DNA of 64,000 nt from Saccharomycopsis phalli (taxonomy: Eukaryota; Ascomycota; Saccharomycetes; Ascoideales; Saccharomycopsidaceae). The notes beneath the pieces were generated by a model. That model was not told the DNA's origin and did no database searches. It saw only the letters and a program-made list of their open reading frames with translations. Shown here one piece after another: positions 30,470-54,224 of this stretch (positions are counted from its first letter, which is position 1; the number at the start of each line of letters is the position of its first letter). The position numbers and the translations under genes are program-made. The stretch spans positions 1,488,001-1,552,000 of the forward strand of contig CP073214.1 of NCBI GenBank assembly GCA_020342235.1, given 5' to 3'.

Positions 30470-30595
30470 TAGGTTAAATAATATCAATGGTATTGGTGTG
30501 TAGGTTAAATAATATCAATGGTATTGGAGTGTAGGTTAAATAATATCAATGGTATTGGAGTGTAGGTTAAATAATATCAATGGTATTGAGGAATT
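30470..30595. repeat. tandem repeat, about 31-bp unit x4
   Basis: Units contain GTAGGTTAAATAATATCAAT and GGTATTGGAGT. A nearby open stretch on the + strand (about 30150-30426) lacks an ATG start and family features and is not called. Confidence 0.9.
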
Positions 30596-34583: not shown

Positions 34584-34588
34584 ACCGT

Positions 34589-35026
34589 TGCAATAAAGGG
34601 TACCTAAAAATCTATTCACCGTCTGTTTGGCTCTCAGGAAATGGTCTAGCCAAGTCCATTTCCTCTGCACAACACCGCGTTTATCGTCACTTCCTATCAT
34701 TGTCAAGATCTTTATTGCTCTCCTGGAAACTTTGTTTTCTTTGTCTTTGATACTTGCTTTTGACCCAATCTCCTAGTCAAAGTCTACCAATCCCATTCCC
34801 TTTGACCAAAGAATGTATCTTTTCTTTTCCAAATATAAATATCCGACTCTTTTCCGAATCGTCAAGCAAATATATTTTGCCACTTGACAACACATATCCT
34901 AGTTTCACGTTAGGAGGAGTGCCGCCCTTGGTCTTGGACGGAAAGTATAAATGGCCTAGCAAGCCCATTCCAAGTATATAGTCAAGCAAATATACTTCAC
35001 CCGCTCGTATCCTAGTTATTACATCA
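34589..35026 (+). mobile_element. second LTR L2, adjoining the first
   Basis: Begins TGCAATAAAGGG immediately after the shared ACCGT and ends near 35026. It holds the uninterrupted version of the site where the SINE-like element sits at 10 kb, and a partly duplicated promoter/R-like block (AGTCAAGCAAATATA occurs twice). Fossil. Confidence 0.7.
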
Positions 35027-35860: not shown

Positions 35861-35891
35861 AGTATTGTTTCCAATGTTAATTGATGATTTC

Positions 35892-37013
35892 TTTGTCAAC
35901 CACAAATCAGTCCCAGCACAAGCTTTTAGTGTCAAATAGTTACAAGAGAGCGAATTTAGAATTTTCTTTATTACTATGAACTTAGTCACTTGTTCAAACC
36001 ATGTTTGCTTCGTTAGACATCGTTTGAACTACCGAAAACTTTGCACATAAAAGACAGTCTCTACCGAGTCTTTTCCAGAAAGTACCTCGGACAAGATTAA
36101 TGAAGAATATCATAATGTGAAATGTAAGCAATTAAATTCATTTTAGTGACAAGACTACTGTAAACCAAATTCCAGGTAACATCATAATGGAAGCACCCAT
36201 AGACAATACCGTTAGATATTCCCCGAGATTTAGCCACTCCGCCATTCTTGTTACCGGTTTCTTCTTCATAGAACTGATTGATTCTGTCAATATATTTCGG
36301 GTGGTAATTTTCCATTTCCTCATTTTGCCGATTGTTTAAATATGTAATAATTGTATTTATCTCTTCATTGGTGACTTCTGGTTTAAATTGGACTTTAATG
36401 AGAGTCAGCCGAAATGTAGCGACATGAGAGCTCTTCGTTTTCTCTTTAATGGCAGATAGGTCTGCATCTGAATATTTTCCCGTTGATTTGTCATATGGGG
36501 CAAGTGGACTGACCCCCTCTTGCCGCTTATGCTTCTTATTCAAGGATGGAGCTTTAATATTAGCCGCTTGGATTCCAAGAATAAAGAATGCAAAAAAGAA
36601 TAAAAATTTCATGGCAGGTTTATGATTTTAGAATGAAATTCGGTCATTTATATACTTTTAACAGATACCTTGTCATGATGCACAACGGATGTGGCATCCA
36701 AATTACAAGGAGCTCAAAATAAATGCCTTGCAATGTACTAACAGTAGAATGAGCACTATGATGAAACAAATGGAAGCAGATCAGAGGTAGTGGCGAAAAT
36801 CAATGTATGATACAATGAATCCTTTGGACTTTACAAAATTGCAAAATGTCAAGACAAAGAAATGGACCAAATATGTCAATGCAATGCCTAGTAAATATTT
36901 GTCTATTAATAAAATTGATAGCCTTGTACAGGAGTCATCTACAGCACGTATCCATGAAAAGAATTAGTGCCGTACTAAAGACGTCGTAATATCCAGAGCC
37001 GTGCTATATGTAT
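35892..37013 (-). repeat. inverted segmental duplication, copy 1
   Basis: The same segment recurs inverted at 52489-54029. The non-coding flanks match almost base for base: about 159 bp after the gene (35941-36099 against 53820-53979) show no difference that I can see, and the 5' flank differs at only a few percent of positions. The segment carries one secreted-protein gene. Confidence 0.95.
36097..36612 (-). CDS. small secreted protein, duplicated family (copy 1)
   Basis: 171 aa, intact, and of no family I recognise. Residues 1-16 are a signal peptide (MKFLFFFAFFILGIQA). A dibasic KR (29-30, in KKHKRQE) is a likely Kex2 site that would release a mature part of about 140 aa. The mature part is hydrophilic, has FKPEVTNEEI and YHPKYIDRI helices, one Cys (YGCFHYDVTW) and no membrane segment. 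The promoter has a TATATAAATG element about 45 bp upstream. The paralogue at 53.3 kb is about 68% identical, with most differences charge-changing, although the flanks of the two copies are nearly identical. The role is unknown; the pattern suggests a recognition or conflict function at or outside the cell surface. Confidence 0.8.
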   Translation of the reverse strand: MKFLFFFAFFILGIQAANIKAPSLNKKHKRQEGVSPLAPYDKSTGKYSDADLSAIKEKTKSSHVATFRLTLIKVQFKPEVTNEEINTIITYLNNRQNEEMENYHPKYIDRINQFYEEETGNKNGGVAKSRGISNGIVYGCFHYDVTWNLVYSSLVTKMNLIAYISHYDILH

Positions 37014-37330
37014 GATACCCAAGGCTCCTAGTGGGACACCCTTCCCTTTCATAATATGCAACCTCAGATGCTCAGATCTCATAGGAGCCAGAATTCTATC
37101 ACGCATTGATGAAACACTAGACTCCACTCATGAATACGCATCATGCTTGGACAAGTGTTTTCCAGTTAGTCCATAAACTAGCAGAGTTTTATCAGAATAT
37201 TGTGAAGTCTGAGTCCGTAGGATATGACACAAATGACATCCCGCCGTGAACCATCCTCAGCGGAGTATGTCAAAGCCAGTCTAGATGGTGAATCTGATAA
37301 CTATAAATAGGGATCAGATTACAGTATAGA
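37014..37330 (+). mobile_element. decayed LINE family A fragment
   Basis: CCAGAATTCTATCACGCATT and 'AGACTCCACTCATG' and 'TTGGACAAGTGTTTTCC' match 16.24-16.33 kb in order. No frame survives. Confidence 0.55.
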
Positions 37331-37334
37331 GGGA

Positions 37335-37675
37335 CAATTCAATTGAATATGTTGAGGTTGAACACCATAAGTAAGTCACCAATAACGGAGATCTTGTCTC
37401 CGTTAGAATGAACTCCGTTAGGAGGGCTACCGAATTAGTACCTTGGGGAGGGGGTGGTGAAAGCCACCTCTAAAGATCTAGGCGAAAAACTCATTGCCCC
37501 TCCAATGCTCATTACCTTACATATTTACAAGCTCTGATCGAAAGTTTTTTATCTCTATTGCAGAGTTTTCTTTCGACGACTATATAGTAGCACCGTCCTT
37601 AGTCTTGGACGAAGTATAAATCTCCTCTGGGAGCCTAGTATAGCTATAGCCTTGATAAATATTATTATTATAGAC
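37335..37675 (+). mobile_element. L1 LTR start followed by LINE family B 3' end
   Basis: TGTTGAGGTTGAACACCATA (L1-type start) is followed after about 60 bp by family B sequence, nearly identical to 52.22-52.48 kb: GCTACCGAATTAGTACC, GGTGGTGAAAGCCACC, 'GAAAGTTTTTTATCTC' and the terminal TATAGCTATAGCC plus ATT triplets. Confidence 0.65.
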
Positions 37676-37914
37676 TATAGTGAAGATGAAATGGCCAAGA
37701 AGCATGTAGAAACGGAGGAGTGTAGGTTGGGAAAGAATGTACCTTTTACGGTTTTGCAGAAGGTGCAACCAGATGATTTGAAACGAGTGGGACGATGTAT
37801 TGCATGGTGAAGGTAATGGTTGAACAAGTGGTGATATTTGCCGAGGATATTTCACTAGTGATGTGATAATACACATGGTATCATTACACGTAGTATCTAC
37901 ATGGACCATAATGT

Positions 37915-38040
37915 ATCATGACCATAGATGTATCATGCCCATAGATATATATGACCATAGATATATATGACCATAGATATATATGACCATAGATATATAT
38001 GACCATAGATATATATGACCATAGATATATATGACCATTA
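37915..38040. repeat. 16-bp minisatellite in the cullin promoter
   Basis: Seven to eight units of GACCATAGATATATAT. The last unit ends about 100 bp before the cullin ATG. Confidence 0.95.
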
Positions 38041-38141
38041 ATATTCCACCACACCATTACTCTCAACCTTTTGCATTTCAACTCCACCTCCACCCGGGTA
38101 ACCACGCTACACTAAACAGCCAACCACTATACAATTCAGCA

Positions 38142-40469
38142 ATGTCACTACTGTCATCAGGGGATTTGGAAAGCACATGGGCGTTTATCGAGCCGAATCT
38201 CTACAAGATTCTCGGCACCGAAGATGTCCGTGAGGGCATTCGGGCCGAAGAGTTTATGGAAACCTACACTGCAATTTACAACTTCTGTGTGTCCCGGCTG
38301 CGCAACAGCTCAGTGGCGGGAAATGGGCTTGGCCCAGACTCTGGAACGCGGCTGGTGGTGCTTGTGGGCGGGGAGTTGTACCAGAAGTTGGAGCAGTTTC
38401 TTGTGCGGTACATTGGCCAATTGGCCAAGAAGCCTGACGAGACGTTTCTCGAGTTTTATGTCCGCAAGTGGCGACGGTTCCAGATCGGACTGGGATATTT
38501 GAACAACGTGTTTGATTACATGAACCGGTACTGGGTGCTCAAGGAGCGGAGCGATGGGCGACGGGATATTTATGATGTGAGCACCTTGGCCTCGATCTCG
38601 TGGCGCGACCATCTCTTCTACAAGAACAGCGAGTTGCTCATTGGCGAGATTCTCGAGCTGATCCGGCTCCAGCGAACAAACCAGCCGGTAGACCCTGCTC
38701 TTCTTTCCTACTCTGTGCAGTCGTTTGTCGAGTTGGGAATCGACATGCAGGACTTGAAGCGACGGCATTATGGCATCTACATTGACGACTTTGAGACGCC
38801 GTTTCTCGAGGCGACGCGTCAGTTTTACGCAAAGGAGAGCAGCGAGTACTTGAAGGAGCACAATGTCATTGATTATGTGCACCGGGCGGAGATTCGAATC
38901 GCCGAAGAGGTTGCCCAAGCCAATGGGTACTTGGATGAGCGCAGCCGGATCCTCTTGCTCGACACCATGAACCAATCGATGATCCAGGACCATGCTCCAG
39001 CAATGTACGAGGAGTTTGAGCACATGCTTGCGCGGCGAGATGTGGCACATATCCACAACATGTACTGCTTGTTGAAGAAAGTGTCACAGGCAGTACTTCT
39101 TCCGCTCTCGCGGCTGTTTGAGGCACATGTCAAGGAGGACGGACTCCGAGAGATGGAGAACCTCAAAGCCCGGCAAAAAGCCCCCGAGGAATACGTGGAA
39201 GTTGGTCGGCGGAACATGGCGTTGATTGCATCGGTGGACCCAAAGACCTATGTCAAGACGTTGATTTCCGTGTACGACCGGTATGCGGAGATTGTCCGCA
39301 TAGCCTTTGAAAACGACTCGCTTCTCATCACCGCGTTGCACACCGCGTTCACCCATGTCACCAACAGCAACAGCATCGCCAGTCCGGCTGGTTATACCGG
39401 GACATCCAAGACCCCCGAGTATCTTGCCAAGTATGGGGACTTGTTGATGAAGCGCAAGTCGGAGGAAGCCGGCGACATGTCGGTGGAGGACATTATGAAG
39501 ATCTTCAAGTTCATCCAGGACAAGGACGCGTTTGAGACGCACTACCGCAAGTTGCTCGCCAAGCGATTGATCTACGGCACGTCGGCATCGTTTGAGACCG
39601 AGGAGAGTCTCATTACCCAGCTCCAGATTGAAAACTCCGCGCAGTACACGTCCAGAATGGCCAAGATGTTCCAGGACATGAAGGCGTCCACCGAGCTCCA
39701 GCATGCGTTTGACGAGTATAGCCGCGGACATCCTGACAAGGCTGTCTTGGACGACTTTCTGATCTATGTGCTCGCCGAAACCATGTGGCCGTTCTCGTCG
39801 TTCAAGCACGACTTTGCCGTTCCTCAGGAGTTGGTGCCGACCTACGAGCGCTTGGAGAAGTTGTACAATGAAAAACACTCGGGTCGCCAGCTCAAGTGGA
39901 TCTGGAACTTGTGTCGTGGCGACATCCGCGCAAACATCGCCAAGCCAGGCAAACCGCCGTTCTTGCTCACCATGACAACAATCCAAATGGCCATCGTGTT
40001 GCCCTACAACACCCGCGATAGCTACACGTTTGCCGAGATCTGTGCCCATACTAAGTTGCCCGAGGAACAGGTCCGTGGCAACATCGGGCCGTTGGTCAAG
40101 TTCCGTCTCCTCCAGCAGTCCTCCGAGCACATTTCCAACGATACCGTCTTCACTGTGGTAAAAGAGTATCGCTCCAAGCGTGTCAAGGTGAACTTTGCGT
40201 CCAACGTCCGCATCGAACAGCGCTCCGAGTTGGTCGAAACAACAAGAGAGTTGTACAAGGACCGAGCCTTGTTCTTGCACGCCTGTATTGTGCGCATCAT
40301 GAAGGCCAAGCAGGAACTCAACCATGTGATGTTGGTCAACGAGGTCATCCAGCAGTCGCACACGCGATTCCGCGCCAGCATGGCCGATATAAAGAAGGCC
40401 ATTGAGGAAATGTTGGAGCAGGGTTACATCTCCCGTGTGGGACTCAACTCCTACCAGTATATTGCATAG
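38142..40469 (+). CDS. CDC53: cullin 1 / Cdc53, SCF ubiquitin ligase scaffold
   Basis: 775 aa from MSLLSSGDLESTWAFIEPN. An upstream in-frame ATG (38031) lies inside the minisatellite and is rejected. The N-terminal repeats have the Cul1 pattern (TYTAIYNFCV, GGELYQKLEQFL). The cullin-homology domain has FETHYRKLLAKRLIYG. The C-terminal winged helix holds the neddylation motif IVRIMKAKQELNH, with the acceptor Lys at about 721, and the protein ends SRVGLNSYQYIA as cullins do. Cdc53 bridges Skp1/F-box proteins and the RING protein Hrt1 to ubiquitylate cell-cycle and nutrient regulators in nucleus and cytosol. Nedd8 is removed by the COP9 signalosome, a subunit of which may be encoded at 1.1 kb. 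Cul3 and Cul4 types are less likely from the N terminus. Confidence 0.9.
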   Translation: MSLLSSGDLESTWAFIEPNLYKILGTEDVREGIRAEEFMETYTAIYNFCVSRLRNSSVAGNGLGPDSGTRLVVLVGGELYQKLEQFLVRYIGQLAKKPDETFLEFYVRKWRRFQIGLGYLNNVFDYMNRYWVLKERSDGRRDIYDVSTLASISWRDHLFYKNSELLIGEILELIRLQRTNQPVDPALLSYSVQSFVELGIDMQDLKRRHYGIYIDDFETPFLEATRQFYAKESSEYLKEHNVIDYVHRAEIRIAEEVAQANGYLDERSRILLLDTMNQSMIQDHAPAMYEEFEHMLARRDVAHIHNMYCLLKKVSQAVLLPLSRLFEAHVKEDGLREMENLKARQKAPEEYVEVGRRNMALIASVDPKTYVKTLISVYDRYAEIVRIAFENDSLLITALHTAFTHVTNSNSIASPAGYTGTSKTPEYLAKYGDLLMKRKSEEAGDMSVEDIMKIFKFIQDKDAFETHYRKLLAKRLIYGTSASFETEESLITQLQIENSAQYTSRMAKMFQDMKASTELQHAFDEYSRGHPDKAVLDDFLIYVLAETMWPFSSFKHDFAVPQELVPTYERLEKLYNEKHSGRQLKWIWNLCRGDIRANIAKPGKPPFLLTMTTIQMAIVLPYNTRDSYTFAEICAHTKLPEEQVRGNIGPLVKFRLLQQSSEHISNDTVFTVVKEYRSKRVKVNFASNVRIEQRSELVETTRELYKDRALFLHACIVRIMKAKQELNHVMLVNEVIQQSHTRFRASMADIKKAIEEMLEQGYISRVGLNSYQYIA

Positions 40470-40729
40470 CGTGTGCTGTTCATGATACAGTGGTATGGGC
40501 AGTCACTCCCACCCAGTGAAATCAGCCCGTGTACAGCAATGTCAAGTGTAGTTGGTCGGACTGGAGTAGTCAAGCGGTGGTATTTAGCTACTTGTATCTA
40601 GTCAGTGTTATATTGGTGATTTAATTCGCATGGCCTTATGGAAATATTGTAATTGGTAAGTACAATGGTATAACTGATGGCAATGGGCCAGCAGATGTGG
40701 ACATGAATGTGGTGTAATGTGGAATTGCT

Positions 40730-40805
40730 GTAATGTAAATTGTACTGTAAATTGTACTGTAAATTGTATTGTAATGTAAATTGTACTGTAAAATTGTACT
40801 GTAAT
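40730..40805. repeat. short tandem repeat ATTGTACTGTAA
   Basis: About five degenerate 12-16 bp units in the spacer after the cullin gene. Confidence 0.8.
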
Positions 40806-40867
40806 ATTCATCAAAGTTTAAATTACCAGCACAGTTGGCCATGATTAATTAGATTATGTATTACTTC

Positions 40868-41085
40868 TTAATTATAATAATAATATGTTTATTTACTTCT
40901 ATAGCTATACTAGGCTCCCCAGAAGAGTGAGATTGATATTTCACCGTCTAAAAAACAAAGGACGGCGCCGCTAATTTTGGAGTTGAGAGAAAAACCTTTG
41001 AATGGGGATAAAAACCTTCGACTTGATCTTTAAGAAACTGTTGAAGAGAGATGACTCAAAAGGAGCTATGGAAACTTCTTAATTA
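40868..41085 (-). mobile_element. LINE family B 3' region, inverted
   Basis: The + strand reads TAATAATAATATGTTTATTT, then TTCTATAGCTATACTAGG, 'TTTCACCGTCTAAAAA', ACGGCGCCGCTAATTTT and 'AATGGGGATAAAAACC'. The last block also appears at the very start of the window. Confidence 0.65.
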
Positions 41086-41129
41086 TTTGTTATATATTGA
41101 ATAACCCAGCGCAATGGCTAAACGATAAT

Positions 41130-41465
41130 TGTCCCATAACCTAGCGGAAATCCCTAATAGAACATTACCTGCCCACCACTATTGGTCTTTCGACCTCAAG
41201 AACAGATACACAAAGGATTACCAACGCTACTAAAACCTGTGTCCATTTCTCAGATATAGCAAAGCTTCAACTTGTCAAATTCAACTCGTATGTGCTGGAC
41301 TGATAGGTTCCTTTTTGCTACACCATCACTAGTGGGAAGTTTCTAGTCTGTTGTAGAGTTTCCGACTACATAGCCGTCCTTTGTCTTGGACAACAAAGTA
41401 TAAATCTCCCTGGGAGACAACTATATCTATAGCCTTGAATAAATATTATTACTATATAAGATGGT
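41130..41465 (+). mobile_element. LINE family B 3' region
   Basis: Starts in a coding-like stretch (WSFDLKNRYTKDY), continues with CAGATATAGCAAAGCTTCAA, 'GTGCTGGACTGATAGG', 'TAGCCGTCCTTTGTCTTGG' and ends ATAGCCTTGAATAAATATTA. It faces the inverted copy just upstream, so the two are arranged head to head. No gene is seen from 41465 to 42251. Confidence 0.65.
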
Positions 41466-42251
41466 TGATCTTCATACATAACAGGGATTATCTTGCTAGG
41501 TAATAATTTCTGCGCCATCATTGATTTGGAGCTTAGTATCTACGGGCTCAGACGGTAAACGGCTGAACCACGACAAATTGTACGGTAAATACCAAAATTG
41601 TGGTGTAAAAATTTCAATTAATTTGACAATGGAATTCGAATGAAACTTGGTAGTAAAATGAAAATGGAATTTAATACAATGTTAAAATAGTCACCCATCT
41701 TCGGGATTTGCCTCTTGGCACTATCTACATCAAACCACTCATTAGCCTTCGGGATTTGTATGTGCAGTTGCAAAGTCTGCACCTGCATGTCACGTGATGC
41801 TAAGGCATGATGCATGAGTAATGAGTAGGTTTCAACGTCTGACCGTTGAAGAACACACTCAGAAAGGTTCTGCAAAGATTGTACAATAAAATAATCTATA
41901 TACAAGTAGCAAGAAATAAGCATGGGAAATTATGGAAGGTAGGAAAAGTATGGAAAGTAGAAAAAGTATGGAAAGTAGGAAAACCAAGTAAAAAACCAAC
42001 ATAACATACAACCCAATGTAATGACCAAGTCACTCTGTTTACCATCTGGACTTGACGATGTATATTTTCTGCATTTCAACCTTACGTGCTTACAAATAAC
42101 CAGCCTGGAACAATTAAAAATTGCTCACAGTGCAAGGTAACTCTGTATAACGGCTGACACCGGGAAAGATCAAACCCCGTCATGTGTTTCGGAACTTTCA
42201 GGCTGAGCATATAAATGGTCAAGAAACGGAGAAAGATGGTAAAAAAAAATC

Positions 42252-43265
42252 ATGCTTACAATTAAACAATTACCCAAGCAATTACAGTGTCGATTAAACG
42301 GCCATTCCAAGCTCTTTGGAGTACGATTCATGACCATCATCACCGACCAAAAGGCACACCCCCAACTTACCCGATCTGACAGACAAGATGCCTACATTGA
42401 TCCAGAGACCGACGCCATTTACACGAAAAACACGTTCCCGCACCCTCTGTTTTCTAGTGACGAGTTGAGGTCCATAGACGTCACCCATCGAGAAACAAAA
42501 CGGCTCAGTGACGTTTGGGCATTGGCATTGGTGCGTCTTCTTCGGTTTGGATTTGATATTGCAACTGGGTACCGAGTCCCAAAGAAAAACGAGACTGTCA
42601 CTGCAGAAAACTACAAATTGAGTGCAGAAAAATGGCTTCTGCGGTTTATTTTCCTTGAAAGCGTCGCTGGAGTCCCAGGAATGGTGGCTTCGTTCATCCG
42701 GCACCTCCACTCATTACGCATGTTAAAACGAGACAAAGCTTGGATAGAGACGCTTTGTGATGAGGCTTACAACGAACGAATGCACTTACTTACCTTCATC
42801 AAGCTCGGCCGGCCCGGATTTTTTACTCGTGTGTTTTTAATTGGTGCACAAGGCGTGTTTGCCAACTTGTTCTTCCTTTCCTACTTGGTTACTCCAAAAA
42901 CCTGTCACCGGTTTGTGGGATATTTGGAAGAAGAGGCAGTACGAACCTACAGTCATTGCCTCGAGGACTTGGAAAAGGGCCTTTTGCCCGAATTGGAACA
43001 TATCCAAGTTCCTGACATTGCCCTTGCCTACTGGAACATGAGCCCCGACGCCACATTCAAGGACTTGATCTATTACGTAAGAGCTGACGAAGCAAAGCAC
43101 CGGGAGGTGAATCACACCTTGGCGAACATCAGGGCTTCGGACCGCAATCCGTATGCGTATGTTGCTGACGAGACTGTGCCGCAACCTAGAAACGATTTCC
43201 GATATACCAAACCACATGGATGGGAGAGACTGGACATTATCAAGGTCACGGAAACCTCGGGCTAG
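42252..43265 (+). CDS. AOX1: mitochondrial alternative oxidase
   Basis: 337 aa. The N-terminal 26 residues are basic and hydroxylated, fitting a mitochondrial presequence. The four di-iron ligand regions are present: E136 in FLESVAGVPG, E175-x2-H178 in NERMHLL, the LEEEAV segment (E226-228) and E280-x2-H283 in RADEAKHREVNH. Two hydrophobic helices anchor it to the matrix side of the inner membrane. AOX oxidises ubiquinol and reduces oxygen to water without proton pumping, bypassing complexes III and IV. Its presence excludes Saccharomyces and close relatives. Single exon, with CACGTG motifs shortly after the stop (about 43280-43310). Confidence 0.97.
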   Translation: MLTIKQLPKQLQCRLNGHSKLFGVRFMTIITDQKAHPQLTRSDRQDAYIDPETDAIYTKNTFPHPLFSSDELRSIDVTHRETKRLSDVWALALVRLLRFGFDIATGYRVPKKNETVTAENYKLSAEKWLLRFIFLESVAGVPGMVASFIRHLHSLRMLKRDKAWIETLCDEAYNERMHLLTFIKLGRPGFFTRVFLIGAQGVFANLFFLSYLVTPKTCHRFVGYLEEEAVRTYSHCLEDLEKGLLPELEHIQVPDIALAYWNMSPDATFKDLIYYVRADEAKHREVNHTLANIRASDRNPYAYVADETVPQPRNDFRYTKPHGWERLDIIKVTETSG

Positions 43266-44275
43266 TTTACCCTGTATATATGCACGTGAAATGGTCACAT
43301 TTTATGCACGTGATTTCCTGTAGAGTATATATTGTGGGGTAGGTCATTTTTCTCCATACACTTTTTTCCATAATGAGAGCTAAATGGAGAAAGAAGAGAG
43401 TTAGAAGACTTAAGAGAAAGAGACGGAAGGTTAGAGCCAGATCCAAATAAGCAAGCAGATGAGGATTTGTGGTATTTATAATTAAGGAGAGATGTTGCAA
43501 TTGACGAGATTGCTATTGATGAAATTGCCATTGATGAGACTTGGTTTGGTATTACGAATTGCCATTTATTGAGAGTATTGTGAATAAATGTTCTGCATGT
43601 GAGTGTGTAAGATCGTTCAGTTGTCCTGGCTGAATAATTGTGTGTTTCTGTGTTGTGCCCAGCAGTCAATTAGTGTATTATTGTAGTCCCTCTTATGGGA
43701 ATATGCATCTATCATCCTGAGCAATGTGTAGTTTATTTCAAGGGGAGATGCGGCAAATTAATCAAATCTATGTCGATTATCTCAGCCTAGTTGGTATATG
43801 TTAACTTGCTTTTCAGGTACAATTGAGCAATGTACATGAGTATGTGGTCAGCAACGATGCGATATACTTTGCAATCGATTTTGTTTATTTTTGTGGGTTG
43901 TATTAAACAATCTAGCCTTTTCTCTTATAGGAATAATCGATATCTCTATTTTTAGATGCACCTATTCTCCATTGCCTATTCTCCACTGCGTATTTTCATT
44001 TACATAGCTCTTGAACCACAAGATTTGTTCAGTTATTTGAAATCTTTAGTTATAGAATTCTATTGATCAATGTGTCTTGTGTTGTATTCCAGTAGTATTA
44101 ACCCGTCAATTTGGCCCATATCACAATTGACGATTCTCACAAACTCTTGCTGTCCAACTGATTTCCAACAATTTTACGGTACCACTTGATTTATTTCCAT
44201 TGCAATTCATTTCAACCTATTAGCCATTCAACCACTGCCACTCAGTTACTTCTCCACAACTTTCCATCACCTCCA
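43266..44275. other. spacer without recognised gene
   Basis: Contains two GCACGTGA motifs near 43282 and 43309. A short stretch near 43685 ('CTCTTATGGGAATATGC') may be L1-LTR-like. No gene is recognised. Confidence 0.5.
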
Positions 44276-45196: not shown

Positions 45197-46222
45197 GGTT
45201 GAAGAATCGGAAATTTGGATAGTGGTTTTTCAAGCCCACATGCCGGGACAATGTTCTTCTGCTGGTTGACGCGAGAATGTGTTCAGTGGTGAGCTGGAGA
45301 GAGTGGCAGTGGAGTTTATTGAGGATGGAATGGATTGGTTGTGGGATATTTGTTTGTTTTTTCTCGTGCTCTTTTTGCTCTTCCTTCTCTTCTTTCTGCT
45401 CATCTCTTGTCAAGATATCCAGTAGCCGTATGGAACACTGATAATTGTGGAGAAAACACTACATTAGCATCAGAATAAACACCACATACTCACCTTGCGG
45501 GCAAAATACGAAAACACAAACGGATACTTGCTTTCCATCGCCAAGACATGACTGTAGAATCCGTGGTTCAACGCCTGGATCGTTTCCACCCGGTCAAATT
45601 GCCGACTATATATTTTAAGCTCATAGAGCAACTCCCGGTACTCAGGAACCTGTACATTGCGTAATTCCTGACTAAATACCTGACACTGGATCGTCACTGG
45701 TTAGTTGAAATCTACATGTCGGCTACTCACTATTGATGCTGCACGAGTTTCCCTGATGAGCAGTGACTTGATATTGTAAGCTATTCCATGCCTATGTTAG
45801 TGCAATTCACCTGTCGAGTACTTACAGCTTCACTGATTGAGAGGAGAATCAAATGCACAAGTTCGTTCTGGACCATTAATGAGTCGTTGTAAAAGACGTT
45901 TAATCGGATCTTTGTTAGGTACGAAATGTAATTTAGCACTTACATTGATTGACTGTCCTGGAAAAACCACGGCGCTTGATTCCCGTTTTGACTTGCTTAA
46001 TCCATTTGACTCGCTTAATTCATTTGATCCATTTTCTTCCTTTACTCCTTTTGATTCGCCTAATCCATCTTCTTCCTTTAATATACGGATCCTCTCTATT
46101 CCATTTACTTCCCCTATTCCATTTAGCTCCTCCTTAACATTCTCTGTTTGCCTCTTCTCTTTTTCACTCACAGTGTCACGAAATTCAGCACTATATAGCG
46201 ATCTTGTGCCACGAAAGTACAT
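45189..46222 (-). CDS. spliced gene of unknown function with 34-nt introns
   Basis: Five exons give 291 aa: 46222-45944, 45909-45826, 45791-45731, 45696-45494 and 45437-45189. Introns are 34, 34, 34 and 56 nt with donors GTAAGT or GTGAGT. In the first three, CTAAC lies 1-2 nt before the acceptor AG; the fourth has GCTAAT further away. Exon 1 is Ser/Glu/Asn-rich. Exon 2 reads MVQNELVHLILLSISEA, and exons 4-5 read FYSHVLAMESKYPFVFSYF and CSIRLLDILTRDEQ, clearly coding in register across introns. In exon 3 a second frame also looks coding (YNIKSLLIRETRAAS), so the exact ends of introns 2 and 3 are uncertain. An acceptor at 45686 is an alternative for intron 3. I do not recognise the family. The stop overlaps the start of the next gene. 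Confidence 0.6.
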
Positions 46223-46803
46223 GTTGAAATATGCCGCGTGAGTCCTTTTATATAAAGTTCAGGTGCATGTAGGCCAGACGGACATATCCAAGTGAATGTA
46301 TGATATTTTGTTTACTTAGCAGCTTGTCACTTGTGTGGGTTAAATAGTTTGGAACATGTTATTTAGTGTGAAATGTATAGATCCAGAGATCCTTGAGACC
46401 AGTAATATGACTAGTGATATGCCAGCAGGAAACTGCTCTATTCCATTGGAGTTGAGTTTTGCCACATGGACATTATTCTCACGAAATGAAACCGGAATAG
46501 TATTATCCATGTTGCATCAACTTTGCAATAAAGAGGCGCTTCAACCTATCACAAACATATACAAGGTACATCAACTTTGACTTTTTTTGTCGTTGGTTTC
46601 TGACTCGCAAGTTCACTAGATGCACGCTCATTTTACAATAGTACAAGCCATTACCAACAATATATTATATAAATGCTTCTGCAAATCCCTACAATCTTTT
46701 CAGCAAATTTCTATAACCTCTTCGCACTTTTAAGTTCCGATAAGACCACACACAGTCTGCATCCTCTGTACTTGTATTGTATTTAAAAAAATTTGAACAA
46801 GCG

Positions 46804-46876
46804 GCCTAGTTAGCACAATCGGTAGTGCATTCGACTCTTAATCGAAAGGTTGCGGGTTCGAGCCCCGCATTGGGCT
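46804..46876 (+). tRNA. tRNA-Lys(CTT)
   Basis: 73 nt. The acceptor stem GCCTAGT pairs with ATTGGGC, and the D arm AGCACAATCGGTAGTGC, the anticodon arm with loop CTCTTAA (anticodon CTT) and the T arm GCGGGTTCGAGCCCCGC are all standard. No intron. A T-run (TTTTCTTTTT) follows as the pol III terminator. Confidence 0.97.
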
Positions 46877-48727
46877 TTTCTTTTTGCACTTTATTGATAT
46901 TTTTTATATCTTCTTTTTGCTGTAATTAATGGGTATTGCCGACATAAGGTAATGAACATATAGGATGACAGACCTCGTATTTACGGGGCCACTTTAAGTT
47001 GATGATGGTAGTTTTTTTGGCAAAAGTATCGGTGTTGAGTCGTTCACAATGCACGAATTACAGCCGTAATACATGTATAATGATATATAAAATTTTGCTA
47101 CTCGATTTAGCGGATATCCTGTCCTTTAAATACTAATTGCATACCTCGTATCTGTGACATCATTTTATCCCGGATCTCCTAATATTGATTTATCCTTGTT
47201 CTTTGCACAGCCCGTATTTCTTCGTGCATATATAATATGTACGTCACAGGATAAAAGTTTCAAGTAGGTGAGAGGCTAGACAAGGGCAGTATAATCAATA
47301 CAGCAATAAAACAAACACCAAAATAGATGATGAAAAAAGACACAAAATGTAACTAGATCTGCTTATAACTAGATCTGCTTATAACTAAATCTACTTACAA
47401 TTAGATCCGCTGTAAACAAAGAGGATACATTGAGGCGACTCACTATTATATAAGCGTCGCCATATTGCTCAGTATCGGTAGTGTATGAAAGTGCTATAAA
47501 TTCGTTCAGTTATATCAATTATATACGAGCTTTGTTCCTCTTGTTTGAATAATCAGAAACGATGGTAATGATTGCAGAAATGAGCAATTTCTCTTCTTTG
47601 CCAAAAATATTTCCTCGTTATTAGGGCGAGACGGACCTGTTCCAAAAAGTACCTGTTAGCAGTTGGATTCACATGTTCTTGTGTGTTAATGAATAGCTAA
47701 TTCTGTTATGTTCGTCCCAGCCACGGTTGGCAACCTCAACACACCTTATTTTCTAAAAAGAATTCCCTGGCCTTTTGATTCGTGTTGTTTGAAGTTTCAT
47801 CCAGTGTCACAAATTATTCCACGGGAAGGAACTCTCTAAGGAGACTGTTCATAGCAATTGTATCGTCCAATAAACTATGGTTCGTGTAGGACTTGTGACA
47901 TTTAAAGTTCAATAACGTCTTTATCATAACCCACTAAAAGGCCCGTATGGTGCTCACAGACTCCAAGCAATCTTCTTCGAAGTAAGATCTTGCTTAATGG
48001 TTCAGTGGCTAGATGACCATCAAAATGCCATAACGATGATAGCAAACGTCCTTGGATTGTGCGGATTTCACAAGGAAATCTTACTACGGTGAATACGGCC
48101 GACAAGGTTGTTTAGCATCATAGGCAATGTAATACTTATGCGTCGGACATAAGCACATCAAACATGGTCGTGACGCCAAGAGTGTTGATCTATACTTCTA
48201 GGAAACATGAATTAGCCACAAGATTGAGGAATCAGCCAAGAGATTCAGAATGTATGGGTATAGAAAGACGTAAGTACATTATAATCTGTAGTTTATATAT
48301 ATTATATTTTGTTGGTAGTATATTCTGGTGTCACCGATATTACATATACACTTGATCTCACTCCATTTATTATTGAGGCTCCTAGTGTAGGGCTCCCCAT
48401 CAAAGAGGAGATCACTCTACGTACGTGATATATTTGACCCAAAGATAATACATTTCTAAAAGGCATTATAAGCTAAGAAGTTTTGGTATTGCCGTCCAAC
48501 ATGATACACATGGGTCTGCAAAAAGTGGCTTCGAGATGAGATACGCTCCGTAGACACGCTTTAATTTCTGTAGATATATCAGCTCCCATAGCTCACTGAT
48601 TCTGTTACTCTCTGGTGTAATATTTCACATGTGTTTGTCAGTATGGATGCTTGAAACAACAAAAGGCGAGATCTCTATTTGGAAAACGGCCAATGTATAC
48701 CCCACCGACTCGAAAAATTTTCAAGCG
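46877..48727. other. gene-free stretch between the two tRNA-Lys genes
   Basis: No convincing reading frame. A 15-bp tandem repeat (AACTAGATCTGCTTAT type, about four copies) lies at 47340-47415. Stretches around 47.1-47.3 and 47.5-48.4 kb have the look of very old inserted sequence, as is common next to yeast tRNA genes, but I cannot assign them. Confidence 0.45.
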
Positions 48728-48800
48728 GCCTAGTTAGCACAATCGGTAGTGCATTCGACTCTTAATCGAAAGGTTGCGGGTTCGAGCCCCGCATTGGGCT
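48728..48800 (+). tRNA. tRNA-Lys(CTT), second identical copy
   Basis: Identical over all 73 nt to the copy 1.92 kb upstream. Identity extends to CAAGCGGCCTAG before and GGGCTTTTCTTTTTG after the gene, showing recent duplication or gene conversion. Confidence 0.97.
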
Positions 48801-49104
48801 TTTCTTTTTGAACTTTGTAGTTTATATATATTTTTGTAAAAGTTGAATAGAGTGGAGCGTACCGGTTTTTCTATAGGCCTACGAGACATGCGTCAGGGGA
48901 ATATGAATAGTGAGACGCACGTCAAGGAAGAATAAAGTAGACAGAATGGTCCAAAGAGGATGAATAGTAGTATGTAGATGTATGTTATGATGGCTGAAGT
49001 AAATTCGTAGGCGATTCTGTGGGCATCTGACTATCGCAATGGAGAAGTGACGAGTTTGTAATGTGTAGCTAGGAAGAGGATGGAGCAAGGTGGGATATTT
49101 GATT

Positions 49105-49305
49105 TTCATTGAGATATGTTGGTGGCTATGATTGAGATATGTTGGTGGCTATGATTGAGATATGTTGGTGGCTATGATTGAGATATGTTGGTGGCTATGA
49201 TTGAGATATGTTGGTGGCTATGATTGAGATATGTTGGTGGCTATGATTGAGATATGTTGGTGGCTATGATTGAGATATGTTGGTGGCTATGATTGAGGTG
49301 ATGGA
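49105..49305. repeat. 22-bp minisatellite x9
   Basis: Nearly exact units of GAGATATGTTGGTGGCTATG plus ATT. It is 320 bp upstream of PRS, and the homogeneity suggests recent expansion. Confidence 0.95.
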
Positions 49306-49484
49306 TTTCTATATCAACGATATTACAGGTCTTGTGATTACATTATTGACATTTCCATATCAGTGGTTTATACCAATGTATATTTTACCCAATGCATTAC
49401 CAAGGCATGACTTGTTCAATGCCATAATACATAAGTTTGTCCATCTCCATTATTTCATCATCTCCATTCTCATTTGTCCATCCT

Positions 49485-49556
49485 ATTTGTCCATCCTATT
49501 TGTCCATCCTATTTGCCATCCTATTTGCCATCCTATTTGCCATCCTATTTGTCATC
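49485..49556. repeat. tandem repeat in the PRS leader
   Basis: Units of CCATCCTATTTG (with GT before them in the first ones), seven copies, ending 70 bp before the PRS start. Confidence 0.9.
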
Positions 49557-49626
49557 TCATATCTTCAACCCGTGACTGGCGATGGTACATGCAGATATTT
49601 TCAAAAGCCCAAACCATTTTTCGCCC

Positions 49627-50598
49627 ATGAAGACCGAATCATCCAACGAAATCAAGGTGCTAGCCGGAAACTCGCACATAGCCTTGGCAAACTCCATTGC
49701 GGCACAGCTTGGAATAAAAGTCAGCCGGATAATGACCAACCGGTCGAGCAACGACGAGTCGATCATCACGGTCGGCGAGACACTCCGTGACGAGGACATT
49801 TACATTGTGCAGACTGGAAGCGGCGAAAATGACATCAACGACCACCTTATGGAGTTGCTCATGATGATCCGGGCATGCCGCAACGCCTCTGCCCGGCGAA
49901 TAACCGCAGTGGTGCCGAGTTTTCCCTATGCGCGACAGGACAGAAAGGACAAGAGCCGGGCGTGTATCACGGCAAAACTCGTGGCAAACTTGCTCCAGAC
50001 CAGTGGTGCCGACCATGTCATCACCATGGACCTCCATGCCTCCCAGATCCAGGGTTTTTTCCGCATTCCCGTGGACAATTTGTATGGCGAGCCCAGCGTG
50101 ATTGCCTACATCAAGGAAAACGTGGCGTATCGCGACGCCATTATCATTTCTCCCGACGCAGGGGGCGCAAAGCGGGCTGCGTCGCTTGCCGACAAGCTTG
50201 ACTTGAAGTTTGCGCTCATCCACAAGGAGCGGCAGAAGGCCAACGAGGTGCTGAAAATGGTGCTTGTCGGCGACGTGCGTGGGAAAATATGTATAATCGT
50301 CGACGACATGGCAGACACGTGTGGCACGTTGGCCAAAGCCGCAGAGACGTTGCTTTCCCACGGGGCAAATCACGTCATGGCGATTGTCACCCACGGGATT
50401 CTCAGTGGGAATGCCATTGACAACATCAACCAGAGCAAGTTGGACAGAGTGGTGTGCACCAACACCGTGCCGTTTGACGACAAGATGCGCCAGTGCAAGA
50501 AGTTGGCCAAGATCGATGTCAGTCCGACGTTGGCAGAGGCGATTCGACGGTTACACAACGGAGAGAGTGTGTCCTACTTGTTTAACCATTCTCTCTAG
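49627..50598 (+). CDS. PRS4: ribose-phosphate pyrophosphokinase, Prs2/Prs4 type
   Basis: 323 aa from [14 protein letters not shown] at 49627. An in-frame ATG 45 bp upstream adds residues not seen in the family. Hallmarks are [19 protein letters not shown] (ATP loop), [11 protein letters not shown] (Mg/PRPP region), PDAGGAKRA and the PRPP-binding loop [11 protein letters not shown]. The C terminus, SYLFNHSL, matches Prs2/Prs4 rather than the long Prs1/Prs5 subunits, which carry inserts. The enzyme makes PRPP from ribose 5-phosphate and ATP for purine, pyrimidine, His and Trp synthesis in the cytosol. Prs2 and Prs4 cannot be told apart here. ZWF1, the oxidative pentose-phosphate entry enzyme, lies 13 kb away, probably by chance. 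Confidence 0.92.
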
Positions 50599-50689
50599 GT
50601 GGAGGGGTTTGGTGTGGGTTAAGGTCTAATTTGATGCAGCTGATGAATTATTATAGGTGGATGACTTGTATTGGTAGTATTTGTAGTAT

Positions 50690-50940
50690 TAAGAATTATG
50701 TATGTATTACTATGACTTGCCATCACTATGTATTGCTATCATGTATTGCTATCATGTATTGCTATCGTGTATTGCTATCATGTATTGCTATCATGTATTG
50801 CTATCGTGTATTGCTATCGTGTATTGCTATCATGTATTGCCATCATTATGAATTGCCATCACTATGAATTGCCATCACTATGAATTGCCATCACTATGAA
50901 TTGCCATCACTATGAATTGCCATCACTATGAATTGCTACC
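50690..50940. repeat. 15-bp minisatellites after PRS
   Basis: Nine units of ATGTATTGCTATC with A/G variation, then six of ATGAATTGCCATCACT. It begins about 90 bp after the PRS stop. Confidence 0.95.
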
Positions 50941-51179
50941 AACTACATATACCTCGTTTACTCATTAGATTACCGTATTCACCGACTACTTATAAATCAA
51001 CATAGACACATCACTTCTCTTCTCATGTCTTGCCCATGATTTACCCATAACCACCATGCCCAATCCCATCGTCAAGTCCATCGCTAATTTATCCTACAGC
51101 TTTCCACTAAACTGTAAATATCAACATTCCAGCATTAAATCTTATCCATCACTAACATTTCAATGACTGTGAAGCTACT

Positions 51180-51620
51180 GTATTTAGAACCGTCAGTCTC
51201 TGAGTGACAATTTCAAGTTGGCATGCCAAGCTCTTGGAAGCCCAAATCCTATCACAATTTGATAAATATTGACTCCTCAGTAGAATACACACTTGAAATT
51301 GCCAATCCATTCACTTGGTTCTACTCAACGTGTTGAGCACAATTCCTCCAACATGCGTAATTCAGCCATCAAACTATTTACACTTTAACTACTGGAATTG
51401 ATAATACCGCTCAAAAAGTTTAATTTCAGACAATTATGTGAGTGCTGTCGTGGGATTTCTCAATAGCTACCCAGGTTGTTCCTGACTAAACATGCACTGG
51501 TACAGTAACTGTATTTCGGAGACAAATGCTGTGACAATACTATCTATTCATGGCTATAGCTACTAGGCTCAAAGAGATGTATACTTTATCGTCTACAACA
51601 AGGACGGTGCATCAAATGGC
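51180..51620. mobile_element. decayed LINE A and B fragments
   Basis: AGCTCTTGGAAGCCCAAATC and following blocks match 16.23-16.37 kb. TTCATGGCTATAGCTACTAG with TTTATCGTCTACAACAAGGA is an inverted family B piece. All are short and old. Confidence 0.45.
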
Positions 51621-51639
51621 TAATTAGGTACCATGACCT

Positions 51640-52016
51640 CTGATGCCCACAGCTCTTGGATGAAATACTAGATTCTACTCATGGATTACGCAACACGCTT
51701 GGAAACTGTTTGCCAATCGATTCATACGATTAGTGTTACCAGACCGTGTTGGAACATGATTGCTCCAACACATGGTTTGATTCAGCGGCCAGGCTTACAC
51801 AACCAATACAAGTACTAAGTATCAACAATAAAACCACTCACATTGAGATTTTTAATCCCAAGCAACCGAATGAGGCTGATAAAGGGTTTTCTTTAGCAAT
51901 GGTGCCTCAGGATTTTCTTCAGCAATGGTGCCTGATGTTCCTGAGTGAAAATATGTTGAATATCTGTAACGCCGGAGACAATATATAGCTAAATACAAAA
52001 ATAAATATTATTATTA
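51640..52016 (+). mobile_element. LINE family A 3' end
   Basis: Matches 16.23-16.63 kb: ATACTAGATTCTACTCATGG, a protein end reading IEIFNPKQPNE, then the 3' UTR with a duplicated TTCTTCAGCAATGGTGCCT-type segment, CCGGAGACAATATATAGC and the ATT tail. The C-terminal protein end is the best preserved in the window after the 16-kb copy. Confidence 0.75.
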
Positions 52017-52044
52017 TGAAAGGGGGGGTCTCACGAGGAGCCCT

Positions 52045-52490
52045 GCGTATAATATATATATCACTTGCTCGATACTATTGGACTCTCGAGCCCAAGCACA
52101 GATTCCTGAAGGAATTACCAACGCTACTCAAGCCCGTGTCTTATTCTCAGATACAGCAAAGCTTAAAAATCTTATAGGATTCTACTCGTCGATGCTGGAC
52201 CGGTAGTTTTCCCTTTTTGTTACAGCACGTTAGGAGAGCTACCGAGTTAGTACCTTGGGGAGGGGGTGGCTAAAGCCACCTCTAAAGATCTAGGCGAAAA
52301 ACTCATTGCCCCTCCAATGCTCATTACCTTACATATTTACAAGCTCTGATCGAAAGTTTTTTATCTCTGTTGCAGAGTTTTCTTTCGACGACTATATAGC
52401 AGCACCGTCCTTTGTCATAGACCGCGAAGTATAAATCTCCCCTGGGAGCCTAGTATAGCCATAGCCTTAAATGAATGTTATTATTATAAT
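52045..52490 (+). mobile_element. LINE family B 3' region, longest copy
   Basis: Starts in a coding-like stretch ending in stop (WTLEPKHRFLKELPTLLKP, then SYSQIQQSLKIL), followed by the 3' UTR, which includes a 170-bp block shared only with the 37.4-kb copy, and a terminus TAGCCATAGCC with ATT triplets. It abuts the left end of inverted-duplication copy 2. Confidence 0.7.
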
Positions 52491-52778
52491 ACATATAGCA
52501 CGGCTCTGGATATTACGACGTCTTTAGTACGGCACTAATTCTTTTCATGGATACGTGCTGTAGATGACTCCTGTACAAGGCTATCAATTTTATTAATAGA
52601 CAAATATTTACTAGGCATTGCATTGACATATTTGGTCCATTTCTATGTCTTGATATTTTGCAATTTTGTAAAGTCCAAAGGATTCATTGTATTATACAAA
52701 CAAACAACAAAACACTGTACAGTCTCTAATGATCATTGAAAGATCTGTCAGGCTATGGATATTTTCTACGTAATGATA

Positions 52779-53048
52779 TGTAATGAAGAAGAAGGTTTAC
52801 CCTTAATTTTTGTAACTCGGATCGTCCTTGAATTCCTTTTAGAGGATTAGGACTTTCCCTTTTTAATTGTTATTTCCTATCTGGCTCTTGTTCCTCCTTA
52901 AGTGAAGTTGCCCCAACCGGTTCAACTCCACTTTACTCCGATCATAAGCCCTTTGTTATCAAGTATAAATAGTCAGACTTTTCTTTGAATAGTCAAGCAA
53001 ATATATTTTAGCTATTTTACCAACTCGTATCGTAGTTACTATATTACA
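52779..53048 (+). mobile_element. solo LTR L2 with 5-bp target duplication
   Basis: 270 bp, TGTAAT to ATTACA, flanked on both sides by TGATA (52774-52778 and 53049-53053). It carries the AAGTATAAATAGTCAGAC promoter block. It looks whole as an LTR and is absent from the other duplication copy, so it is younger than the duplication. Confidence 0.85.
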
Positions 53049-53315
53049 TGATATAATTAGTATATGTATGTATCAGGGGATCAGAGCTTGAGATGCCATC
53101 AATCAAAATCTGTCATGTCATACATTGTTTTTTGTCGTTACCTCTGATCTGCTTCCATTTGTTTCATCATAGTGCTCATTCTACTGTTAGTACATTGCAA
53201 GGCATTTATTTTGAGCTCCTTGCAATTTGGATGCCGCATCCGTTGTGCATCATGACAAGGCATCTATTAAAAGTATATAAATGACCAGATTTCATTCTAA
53301 AATCATAAACCTGCC

Positions 53316-53822
53316 ATGAAATTTTTATTCTTTTTTACATTCTTTATTCTTGGAATCCAAGCGGCTAATATTAAAGCTCCATTCTTGAATAAGCGGCAAA
53401 AGGAGGCCAGTCCACTTGTCCCATATGACAAATCAACGGGAAAATATTCAGAAACAGACCTATATGCCATTAACAAGAAAGCGGATGACTCGCATGTCAC
53501 TACATATTGGCTGACGTTCATTAGATTCGAATTTAAACCAGAAGTCACCAATGAAGAGATAGATACAATTATTGCATATTTAGACAAACGGCAAAATGAG
53601 GAGTTGAAAAAGTACCACCCGAAATATATTAACAGAGTCAAGCTGTTCTATAAAAAATACACCGGTAACGAAAATGGCGGAGTGGATAGATCTTGGTCAA
53701 TATATGACAATATTCTCTATGGGTGCTTCCATTATGATGTTACCTGGGATTTGGTTTACAGTAGCCTTGTCACTGAAATTTATGTAGTTGCTCACATTTC
53801 ACATTATGAGGATCCTCATTAA
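53316..53822 (+). CDS. small secreted protein, duplicated family (copy 2)
   Basis: 168 aa, intact. The signal peptide MKFLFFFTFFILGIQA differs by one residue from copy 1. The KR of the likely Kex2 site is kept in LNKRQK, though three residues before it are missing. By eye I count about 54 replacements against copy 1, many reversing charge (E/K, K/E, D/N, N/D, E/Y), but only about five silent changes. Conserved islands are PYDKSTGKYS, FKPEVTNEEI, YHPKYI, NGGV and YGCFHYDVTW. The TATATAAATGACC promoter and untranslated flanks match copy 1. The function is unknown. Confidence 0.8.
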   Translation: MKFLFFFTFFILGIQAANIKAPFLNKRQKEASPLVPYDKSTGKYSETDLYAINKKADDSHVTTYWLTFIRFEFKPEVTNEEIDTIIAYLDKRQNEELKKYHPKYINRVKLFYKKYTGNENGGVDRSWSIYDNILYGCFHYDVTWDLVYSSLVTEIYVVAHISHYEDPH

Positions 53823-54224
53823 TCTTGTCCGAGGTACTTTCTGGAAAAGACTCGGTAGAGACTGTCTTTTATGTGCAAAGTTTTCGGTAGTTCAAACGAT
53901 GTCTAACGAAGCAAACATGGTTTGAACAAGTGACTAAGTTCATAGTAATAAAGAAAATTCTAAATTCGCTCTCTTGTAACTGTTTGTGATTAAAATCTTG
54001 TGCTGGGACTGATTTGTGGTTGACAAAGACCTTTTAAAGTGCGTGGTAGAGATACTTTAACAAAAATGGAAATCTTTCTTAATAATATAATATATTATTC
54101 CTTTGGACTAGAATGATTGAATTAATGATCAATTCCCAGCCTTGTTATAATAGAAAATGATCCCCTTTAATAGTTTTCATTTTACCATTATTGTCGTGGT
54201 TTCTCAACCACTGGAGAATAAGTT

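What the first reader, a model, noticed from the sequence alone, without database searches (positions are those of the whole stretch)
35892..54029. Inverted gene pair: near-identical flanks, fast-changing secreted protein
Seen: two inverted copies (35892-37013 and 52489-54029). The 159 bp after the stop codons are identical by eye and the 5' flanks differ at a few percent, yet the coding regions differ by about 54 of 168 amino acids, with only about five silent differences. Replacements cluster in the mature part and often reverse charge; the signal peptide and a few islands are kept. Known: such an excess of replacement over silent and flanking change is the mark of diversifying selection, or of conversion that homogenises flanks but spares the gene. 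Inferred: an intact secreted protein family in a recognition or conflict role. I found no known family.
Basis: partly seen in the sequence, partly recalled or inferred. Interest (0 to 1): 0.92.

Follow-up and report, generated by a model that had tools for sequence, protein, structure and literature searches.

The report
Fast-diverging secreted yeast gene pair
A yeast carries two copies of a gene for a secreted protein in which changes that alter the protein outnumber silent changes far beyond chance, which suggests that the protein is kept changing by some conflict, although what it does is not known.

Summary
Two inverted ~1.1-kb units (35890-37017, 52485-54029) each carry one intact secreted-protein ORF (171 and 168 aa). 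They differ in residue at 54 of 168 aligned codons but by only 5 silent changes. dN is 0.17, dS 0.048, omega about 3.5; 0 of 5000 neutral simulations gave so few silent changes. Replacement sites differ more than the flanks (15.3% against 3.2%, p=1e-11), while silent sites and flanks do not differ (p=0.57). That points to diversifying selection and against conversion that merely spared the gene. The 159 bp after the stop are identical, perhaps a small conversion tract (p=0.022). The host looks like an intron-poor budding yeast that reads CUG as serine (p=6e-5). Each protein has a signal peptide and a Kex2-type KR|Q site before a 141-aa mature part with one cysteine. No known family matched. 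Two fold models are poor; one resembled Aspergillus protease propeptides, but the I9 profile test failed. Best reading: a secreted antagonist, killer-toxin-like or inhibitor-like. The selection is well supported; the role is inferred. Interest is moderate.

The parts
35890..37017 (-). Duplicated unit, copy A
   Evidence: Inverted repeat arms I1-I3; blastn of the two regions
52485..54029 (+). Duplicated unit, copy B, interrupted by an insertion at 52699-53117
36097..36612 (-). Gene A: secreted protein, 171 aa
   Evidence: Intact ORF
53316..53822 (+). Gene B: secreted protein, 168 aa
   Evidence: Intact ORF; 54 of 168 aligned residues differ from A
36562..36612 (-). Signal peptide of A (about 17 residues, end judged by eye)
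   Evidence: Hydrophobic stretch, best 9-residue mean 3.1; 1 of 17 codons replaced between copies
53316..53366 (+). Signal peptide of B (about 17 residues, end judged by eye)
   Evidence: Best 9-residue mean 2.82
36523..36528 (-). Lys-Arg (KHKR|Q), Kex2-type processing site of A
   Evidence: Read from the translation; motif recalled, cleavage not tested
53391..53396 (+). Lys-Arg (NKR|Q), Kex2-type processing site of B
   Evidence: Read from the translation; a 3-codon gap here shortens the propeptide of B
36100..36522 (-). Mature part of A, 141 residues, one Cys (C140), pI 6.2
53397..53819 (+). Mature part of B, 141 residues, one Cys (C137), pI 5.7
   Evidence: 63% identical to A
53586..53591 (+). 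Second Lys-Arg (DKR|Q) inside mature B; A has NNRQ there
   Evidence: Read from the translation; possible second Kex2 cut, not tested
36613..36810 (-). Near upstream flank of A with TATATAAA before the ATG
   Evidence: 11 of 198 positions differ from B
53118..53315 (+). Near upstream flank of B with TATATAAA before the ATG
35938..36096 (-). 159 bp after the stop of A, identical in B, with AATAAA
   Evidence: 0 of 159 differ; first mismatch at +160
53823..53981 (+). 159 bp after the stop of B, identical in A
52699..53117 (.). ~420-bp insertion upstream of gene B, with an imperfect 7-base direct repeat at its ends (by eye) and similarity to repeats at 28585-28675 and 34523-34904

Best explanation
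A gene for a small secreted protein was duplicated not long ago into an inverted pair 16 kb apart in a budding yeast of the CUG-Ser kind. The protein is made with a signal peptide, probably trimmed by Kex2 after a Lys-Arg, and released as a 141-residue mature protein. Since the duplication, diversifying selection has fixed replacements in the mature part about 3.5 times faster per site than silent changes, while secretion and processing signals were kept. Most likely the mature protein is an antagonist that touches a changing partner outside the cell, such as a killer-toxin-like protein aimed at rival yeasts or an inhibitor of a foreign enzyme, and the two copies were kept because different surfaces help against different partners. 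Shown: duplication, intact ORFs, excess of replacements. Read from sequence: signal peptide, Lys-Arg site. Inferred: Kex2 cutting, release, antagonism.
For: Counting gives dN 0.171 and dS 0.046, or 0.169 and 0.048 with CUG as Ser; YN00 and ML give 0.18 and 0.04. Fisher p for replacement against silent is 0.002 and 0.003. 0 of 5000 neutral simulations gave 5 or fewer silent changes (mean 16.9). Of six reading frames tested, only the gene's own has no stops, and its omega is the highest. Replacement sites 60/392 against flanks 20/619, p=1e-11. Charge reversals 8/54 against 4.9% expected, p=0.0045. Signal peptide and KR|Q kept in both copies. CUG read as Ser: CTG codons face L/I/V/M/F in 3 of 13 aligned places, other Leu codons in 117 of 147.
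Against: Only one pair from one genome: no population data, no third copy, no polarity. No homologue was found, but no fungal genome collection was at hand. Neither fold model is confident (mean pLDDT 52 and 47). The known K1 and K28 toxins have several Kex2 cuts and disulfide bonds (passages); this has one shared KR site and one Cys. KKT killer-toxin paralogues in print have gene-wide dN/dS of 0.23-0.72 with only local peaks above 1 (PMC7888664, passages), unlike this pair. No expression data.
Confidence: 0.5

Rival explanations
1. Gene conversion keeps the flanks of an old gene pair alike but spares the coding region, so the gene looks fast only by comparison.
For: The 159 bp after the stop are identical while sites just beyond differ (5 of 48); so long an identical stretch has p=0.022, and the flank segments differ in rate (chi-square p=0.0005).
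Against: Spared coding DNA would be diverged at silent sites too. Silent sites (5/112) are as alike as flanks (20/619), p=0.57. Conversion of the 3' end may have happened, but it does not explain the replacements.
Confidence: 0.06
2. Relaxed constraint or a decaying copy: one or both genes are free to change.
For: AT-rich genes without known family (GC 0.36 against 0.46-0.58 in 11 conserved neighbours) beside repeats.
Against: Relaxation brings omega to 1, not 3.5; both ORFs are intact, and signal peptide, KR site and the only Cys are kept.
Confidence: 0.05
3. A secreted stand-alone protease inhibitor of the subtilisin-propeptide (I9) fold, in an arms race with a foreign protease.
For: Both models place a strand, then helices, then a last strand.
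Against: No hit has E below 0.001 and the model is poor. With the second model no protease propeptide is among the 50 of 61 matches listed. Profile comparison with I9 domains scored 10.05 over 4 aligned columns; 116 of 200 column shuffles did as well and the reversed alignment scored 10.64, while yeast Pbi2 and POIA1 as positive controls scored 20-38. Pfam gave no I9 hit.
Confidence: 0.12
4. An effector of a parasitic or host-associated yeast, diversified by pressure from the animal or plant host.
For: Secreted, without known family, positively selected, beside repeats, as many fungal effectors are (recalled). The CUG-Ser genus Metschnikowia (CUG use recalled) includes an animal parasite (PMC9234493, passages).
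Against: The organism is not identified; nothing here shows a host.
Confidence: 0.2
5. A recognition protein between cells of the same yeast, such as a mating or kin signal.
For: Secreted, Kex2-type site, fast change, two versions in one genome.
Against: Too large for an alpha-factor-type peptide, no internal repeats seen in the translation; nothing positive points to mating.
Confidence: 0.1

Closest known systems
K1-like killer toxins (KKT genes) of Saccharomycotina, PMC7888664 (passages read)
   Same: Chromosomal yeast genes for secreted precursors, duplicated in the genome with similar flanks (83-94% over ~2,000 bp in K. africana).
   Different: Three KKT paralogue pairs have gene-wide dN/dS 0.72, 0.41 and 0.23, with a few local peaks above 1; this pair has about 3.5 overall. 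KKT genes are mostly subtelomeric; this pair sits among conserved genes. No direct sequence comparison with KKT proteins was made.
SMKT, Klus/Ksino and KP4/KP6 killer toxins (PMC13211469, PMC12875307, passages read)
   Same: Small secreted toxins, several chromosomal, one (SMKT) from Millerozyma farinosa, a yeast that I recall as CUG-Ser.
   Different: phmmer against all PDB chains gave only 3 and 1 unrelated chance-level hits, and no killer-toxin family came up in Pfam; one Cys only; single shared KR site.
Inhibitor_I9: subtilisin propeptides, yeast Pbi2, Pleurotus POIA1
   Same: Weak structural resemblance of one poor model.
   Different: Profile comparison no better than shuffles; longer helical part; secreted, whereas Pbi2 is cytosolic (recalled).
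Candidate secreted effectors of powdery mildews
   Same: Secreted paralogues with fast-changing mature parts (kind recalled; search listing only).
   Different: The host looks like an intron-poor CUG-Ser yeast, not a mildew; the Y-x-C motif here lies near the C-terminus, not after the signal peptide (family rule recalled).

Membership tests
Gene under diversifying selection | dN significantly above dS | tested here: met
   omega 3.5-3.7, Fisher p 0.002-0.003; 0 of 5000 neutral simulations
Gene under diversifying selection | Replacement rate above linked non-coding rate | tested here: met
   60/392 against 20/619, p=1e-11
Gene under diversifying selection | Recurrent across a phylogeny or population | not testable with these tools
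   No fungal genomes at hand; no genome held for the window
CUG-Ser clade yeast | CUG codons stand where relatives have Ser/Thr, not hydrophobic residues | tested here: met
   CTG faces hydrophobics in 3 of 13, Ser/Thr in 6 of 13; other Leu codons face hydrophobics in 117 of 147 (p=6e-5); log-likelihood 6.5 units better as Ser. The 13 are all aligned CTG of the 19 in four genes (43 in 11 genes); one relative per gene; PTA1 was tried and had no PDB match.
CUG-Ser clade yeast | tRNA-Ser with anticodon CAG | not tested
   Not in this window (only tRNA-Lys found); the rest of the genome is not held
Yeast killer toxin | Signal peptide and Kex2-type processing site | tested here: met
   By sequence motif only
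Yeast killer toxin | Sequence similarity to a solved killer toxin | tested here: not met
   phmmer of both proteins against all PDB chains, E up to 10: 3 and 1 unrelated hits
Yeast killer toxin | Several Kex2 cuts and disulfide-linked chains, as in K1 and K28 | tested here: not met
   One KR site common to both copies, one Cys; B alone has a second KR. I do not know that all killer toxins share this feature.
Yeast killer toxin | Kills or inhibits other yeasts | not testable with these tools
   Needs an assay
Inhibitor_I9 | Match to the family profile | tested here: not met
   Pfam no hit; hhalign score 10.05, 116 of 200 shuffles as good
Inhibitor_I9 | Ferredoxin-like propeptide fold | tested here: inconclusive
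   Weak hits with one poor model, not with the other
Powdery mildew secreted effectors | Mildew host with standard code and introns | tested here: not met
   13 of 13 Pfam-matched neighbours read in one open frame over the matched domain (chosen as long ORFs, so genes with introns were less likely to be picked); CUG read as Ser

The most novel reading that the evidence does not exclude
An undescribed family of secreted yeast antagonists, single-cysteine and Kex2-processed, whose whole mature domain evolves under positive selection strong enough to see from one paralogue pair; copy B even has a second KR|Q site, absent from A, that could turn it into a two-chain protein. It could be a new class of killer toxin or a secreted enzyme inhibitor in an arms race.
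Probability: 0.27. Interest if true: 0.65.

Novelty: new member of a known kind. Interest (0 to 1): 0.42.

Why it matters
Fast-evolving secreted paralogues are a known kind in fungi, but a gene-wide omega well above 1 from a single pair is strong: the three published yeast killer-toxin paralogue pairs that I could read about are below 1 (PMC7888664, passages). The two copies with near-identical promoters and 3' ends are a clean natural experiment: almost everything that differs is the mature surface. If it is an antagonist, swapping assays between A and B would show what the changes buy.

Tried and rejected
Powdery mildew or other plant pathogen as source: first guess, dropped after the intron-free genes and the CUG test. 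Targeted hypermutation or conversion from a distant copy: both would raise silent change as well, which is not seen. A selected gene on the opposite strand or in another frame: all five other frames have 7-19 stops. ARD family hit of copy A in Pfam (E 0.0065-0.01, below the cut-off, absent in B): taken as chance. I9 protease inhibitor: raised, not borne out. Viral proteins: none of 139 matches in BFVD reached E 0.001, 50 listed. Relatives in bacteria, archaea or viruses: 468 and 111 stretches matched short peptide patterns, none was confirmed. Three peptides of the protein in the full text of the held papers: 0 papers. Literature used: passages of PMC13211469, PMC12875307, PMC7888664, PMC9234493; other papers were seen only in search listings.

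Rows left out; 30 of the 50 loci were taken (L001-L019 and 11 of L021-L050); L020 and 19 others, mostly shorter matches, were not; a domain with an internal stop would have been dropped and the final number was not printed; L025 is probably the same gene as L001; the short first domain of the UBP alignment and the poorly aligned middle and last residues of REH1 were not entered; they hold no CTG codon; the two upstream segments overlap by 7 bases of copy A, which were counted twice. An earlier count said 118 of 147; the right count is 117.
Full report
What is there. Two inverted copies of a unit of about 1.1 kb lie about 16 kb apart at 35890-37017 (minus) and 52485-54029 (plus); copy B is interrupted by a ~420-bp insertion at 52699-53117 that, by eye, carries an imperfect 7-base direct repeat at its ends and resembles other repeats in the window. 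Each unit holds one intact ORF: A, 36097-36612, 171 aa; B, 53316-53822, 168 aa. No further copy is in the window (tblastn, other hits at E 1.2 or worse). On both sides of both units lie repeats of families that occur elsewhere in the window.

The numbers. Aligned codon by codon, 54 of 168 residues differ. There are 60 replacement and 5.0 silent differences, at 392 and 112 sites: dN 0.171, dS 0.046, omega 3.7; YN00 and ML give 4.0 and 4.5. With CUG read as serine omega is 3.5. Differences fall 35, 16 and 14 on codon positions 1, 2 and 3. Fisher's test of replacement against silent gives p=0.002 (0.003 with CUG as Ser). Placing 65 changes at random with the same transition share and no stops gave a mean of 16.9 silent changes and never 5 or fewer in 5000 runs. 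The five other reading frames hold 7-19 stops each and give omega of 0.2-1.5.

Flanks against silent sites. The flanks differ at 20 of 619 positions (3.2%): 4/214 far upstream, 11/198 near upstream, 0/159 after the stop and 5/48 beyond. Silent sites differ at 5/112, not distinguishable (p=0.57), while replacement sites differ at 60/392 (p=1e-11). If conversion had kept flanks alike and spared an old gene, silent sites in that gene would be old too; they are not. The three classes together are what positive selection on the protein predicts. The 159-bp identical stretch is longer than expected (p=0.022) and the flank segments are uneven (chi-square p=0.0005), so a small conversion tract at the 3' end, or constraint on the 3' UTR, is possible.

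Which changes. The signal peptide has one replacement in 17 codons. Replacements are clustered (runs test p=0.006), though the identical islands are not longer than chance (p=0.50). Eight replacements reverse charge, against 4.9% expected (p=0.0045); charge changes of any kind are 25 of 54 (p=0.051).

Anatomy of the protein. A hydrophobic start is followed by a short propeptide ending in Lys-Arg before Gln in both copies (KHKR|QEG and NKR|QKE), the usual form of a Kex2 site (recalled); a three-codon gap falls just before it. The mature part is 141 residues with one cysteine in the invariant stretch YGCFHYDVTW. Copy B has a second KR|Q where A has NNRQ. A TATATAAA box lies before both start codons and an AATAAA in both 3' ends.

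Which organism. Thirteen ORFs match Pfam families (calreticulin, symplekin/PTA1, CorA, SKN1/KRE6, cullin, UCH, ADH, aldo/keto reductase, zf-C2H2, AOX, Mit_KHE1, ribose-phosphate pyrophosphokinase, UBC), a fungal set; the nearest solved chains are cullin-1, REH1, USP12 and AOX. All 13 are single open frames over the matched domain, and at least eight matches span nearly the whole profile (the UBC match stops at 113 of 140). I chose long ORFs, so genes with introns were less likely to be picked. CTG is 7% of leucine codons while GTG is 50% of valine codons. Where four proteins could be aligned to a solved relative, CTG faced L, I, V, M or F in 3 of 13 places and Ser or Thr in 6 of 13, while other Leu codons faced hydrophobics in 117 of 147 (p=6e-5). 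This is most likely a CUG-Ser budding yeast. A gene spacing near 3.2 kb (my rough count of 20 genes), few introns and CUG-Ser fit a Metschnikowia-like yeast (M. bicuspidata: 16.13 Mb, 5,567 genes, 1.17 exons per gene, LINEs, GC 47.65%; passages read; this window has about 44% GC), but the species is not shown.

Search for kin. No Pfam family reached its cut-off, no PDB chain matched by sequence beyond chance, and pattern-seeded scans of 84,980 bacterial and archaeal genomes and of IMG/VR confirmed none. No collection of fungal genomes was at hand, so 'no family' means only 'not found here'.

Fold. Two AlphaFold2 models from two-sequence alignments are poor (A full length, mean pLDDT 52, pTM 0.44; mature B with CUG as Ser, 47 and 0.37). 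With the first, the four best PDB hits were chains of 91-95 residues from Aspergillus alkaline protease entries (E 0.06-0.32; none of 402 matches at E 0.001), probably its I9 propeptide. I tested that lead: Pfam gives no I9 hit, the second model does not show it among the 50 of 61 matches listed, and the pair's profile scores 10.05 against I9 domains, matched by 116 of 200 column shuffles, while Pbi2 and POIA1 score 20-38. The lead is not excluded but has no sequence support. BFVD gave nothing convincing. The second structural aligner was not available.

How it most likely works. Shown: a recent duplication, two intact genes, strong excess of replacements in the mature part. Read from motifs: secretion and Kex2-type maturation. 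Inferred: the mature protein meets a partner that itself changes, and the copies are kept for different surfaces. A killer-toxin-like role is a natural guess for a secreted Kex2-type protein of a yeast, and new chromosomal toxins are still being found (PMC12875307, passages); yet three published KKT toxin paralogue pairs have gene-wide dN/dS of 0.23-0.72 (PMC7888664, passages), and this protein lacks the chain and disulfide layout of K1 and K28. A host-directed effector or an enzyme inhibitor remain close rivals.

Verdict. A real and well-supported case of diversifying selection on a secreted yeast protein of unknown family; a new member of a known kind, of moderate interest until homologues or an assay give it a partner.

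Noticed in passing
window 8042-9037 (+): An ORF with a signal-peptide-like start ends at a TGA at 8522-8524, and the same frame stays open to 9037. 'LFIHGLW' recalls an RNase T2 active-site motif (recalled), but Pfam matches neither piece.
   Followed up: partly
window, whole: CUG seems to be read as serine in this genome, so any translation of the window under the standard code is slightly wrong.
   Followed up: yes
window 46803-46877 and 48727-48801 (+): Two tRNA-Lys(CTT) genes about 1.9 kb apart inside a 110-nt repeat of 93% identity.
   Followed up: no
window 35327-35549 and 35629-35850: A pair of ~224-bp direct repeats (85% alike) beside copy A, with a related stretch at 7459-7530; may be truncated ends of a mobile element.
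   Followed up: no
window 10080-10176, 13194-13290, 22044-22140 and 51951-52017 (inverted): A dispersed repeat; two of the three direct copies begin with TAATAATA, perhaps the tail of a LINE-like element. Two ORFs beside a related repeat (15546-16043, 16044-16517) gave no Pfam match above cut-off.
   Followed up: partly
window 14700-15011 (+): A 103-aa ORF with a signal-peptide-like start and no Pfam match: another possible small secreted protein.
   Followed up: no
window 740-947, 22462-22621, 30467-30588, 49108-49291: Short tandem repeat arrays with units of 16, 32, 31 and 23 bp.
   Followed up: no
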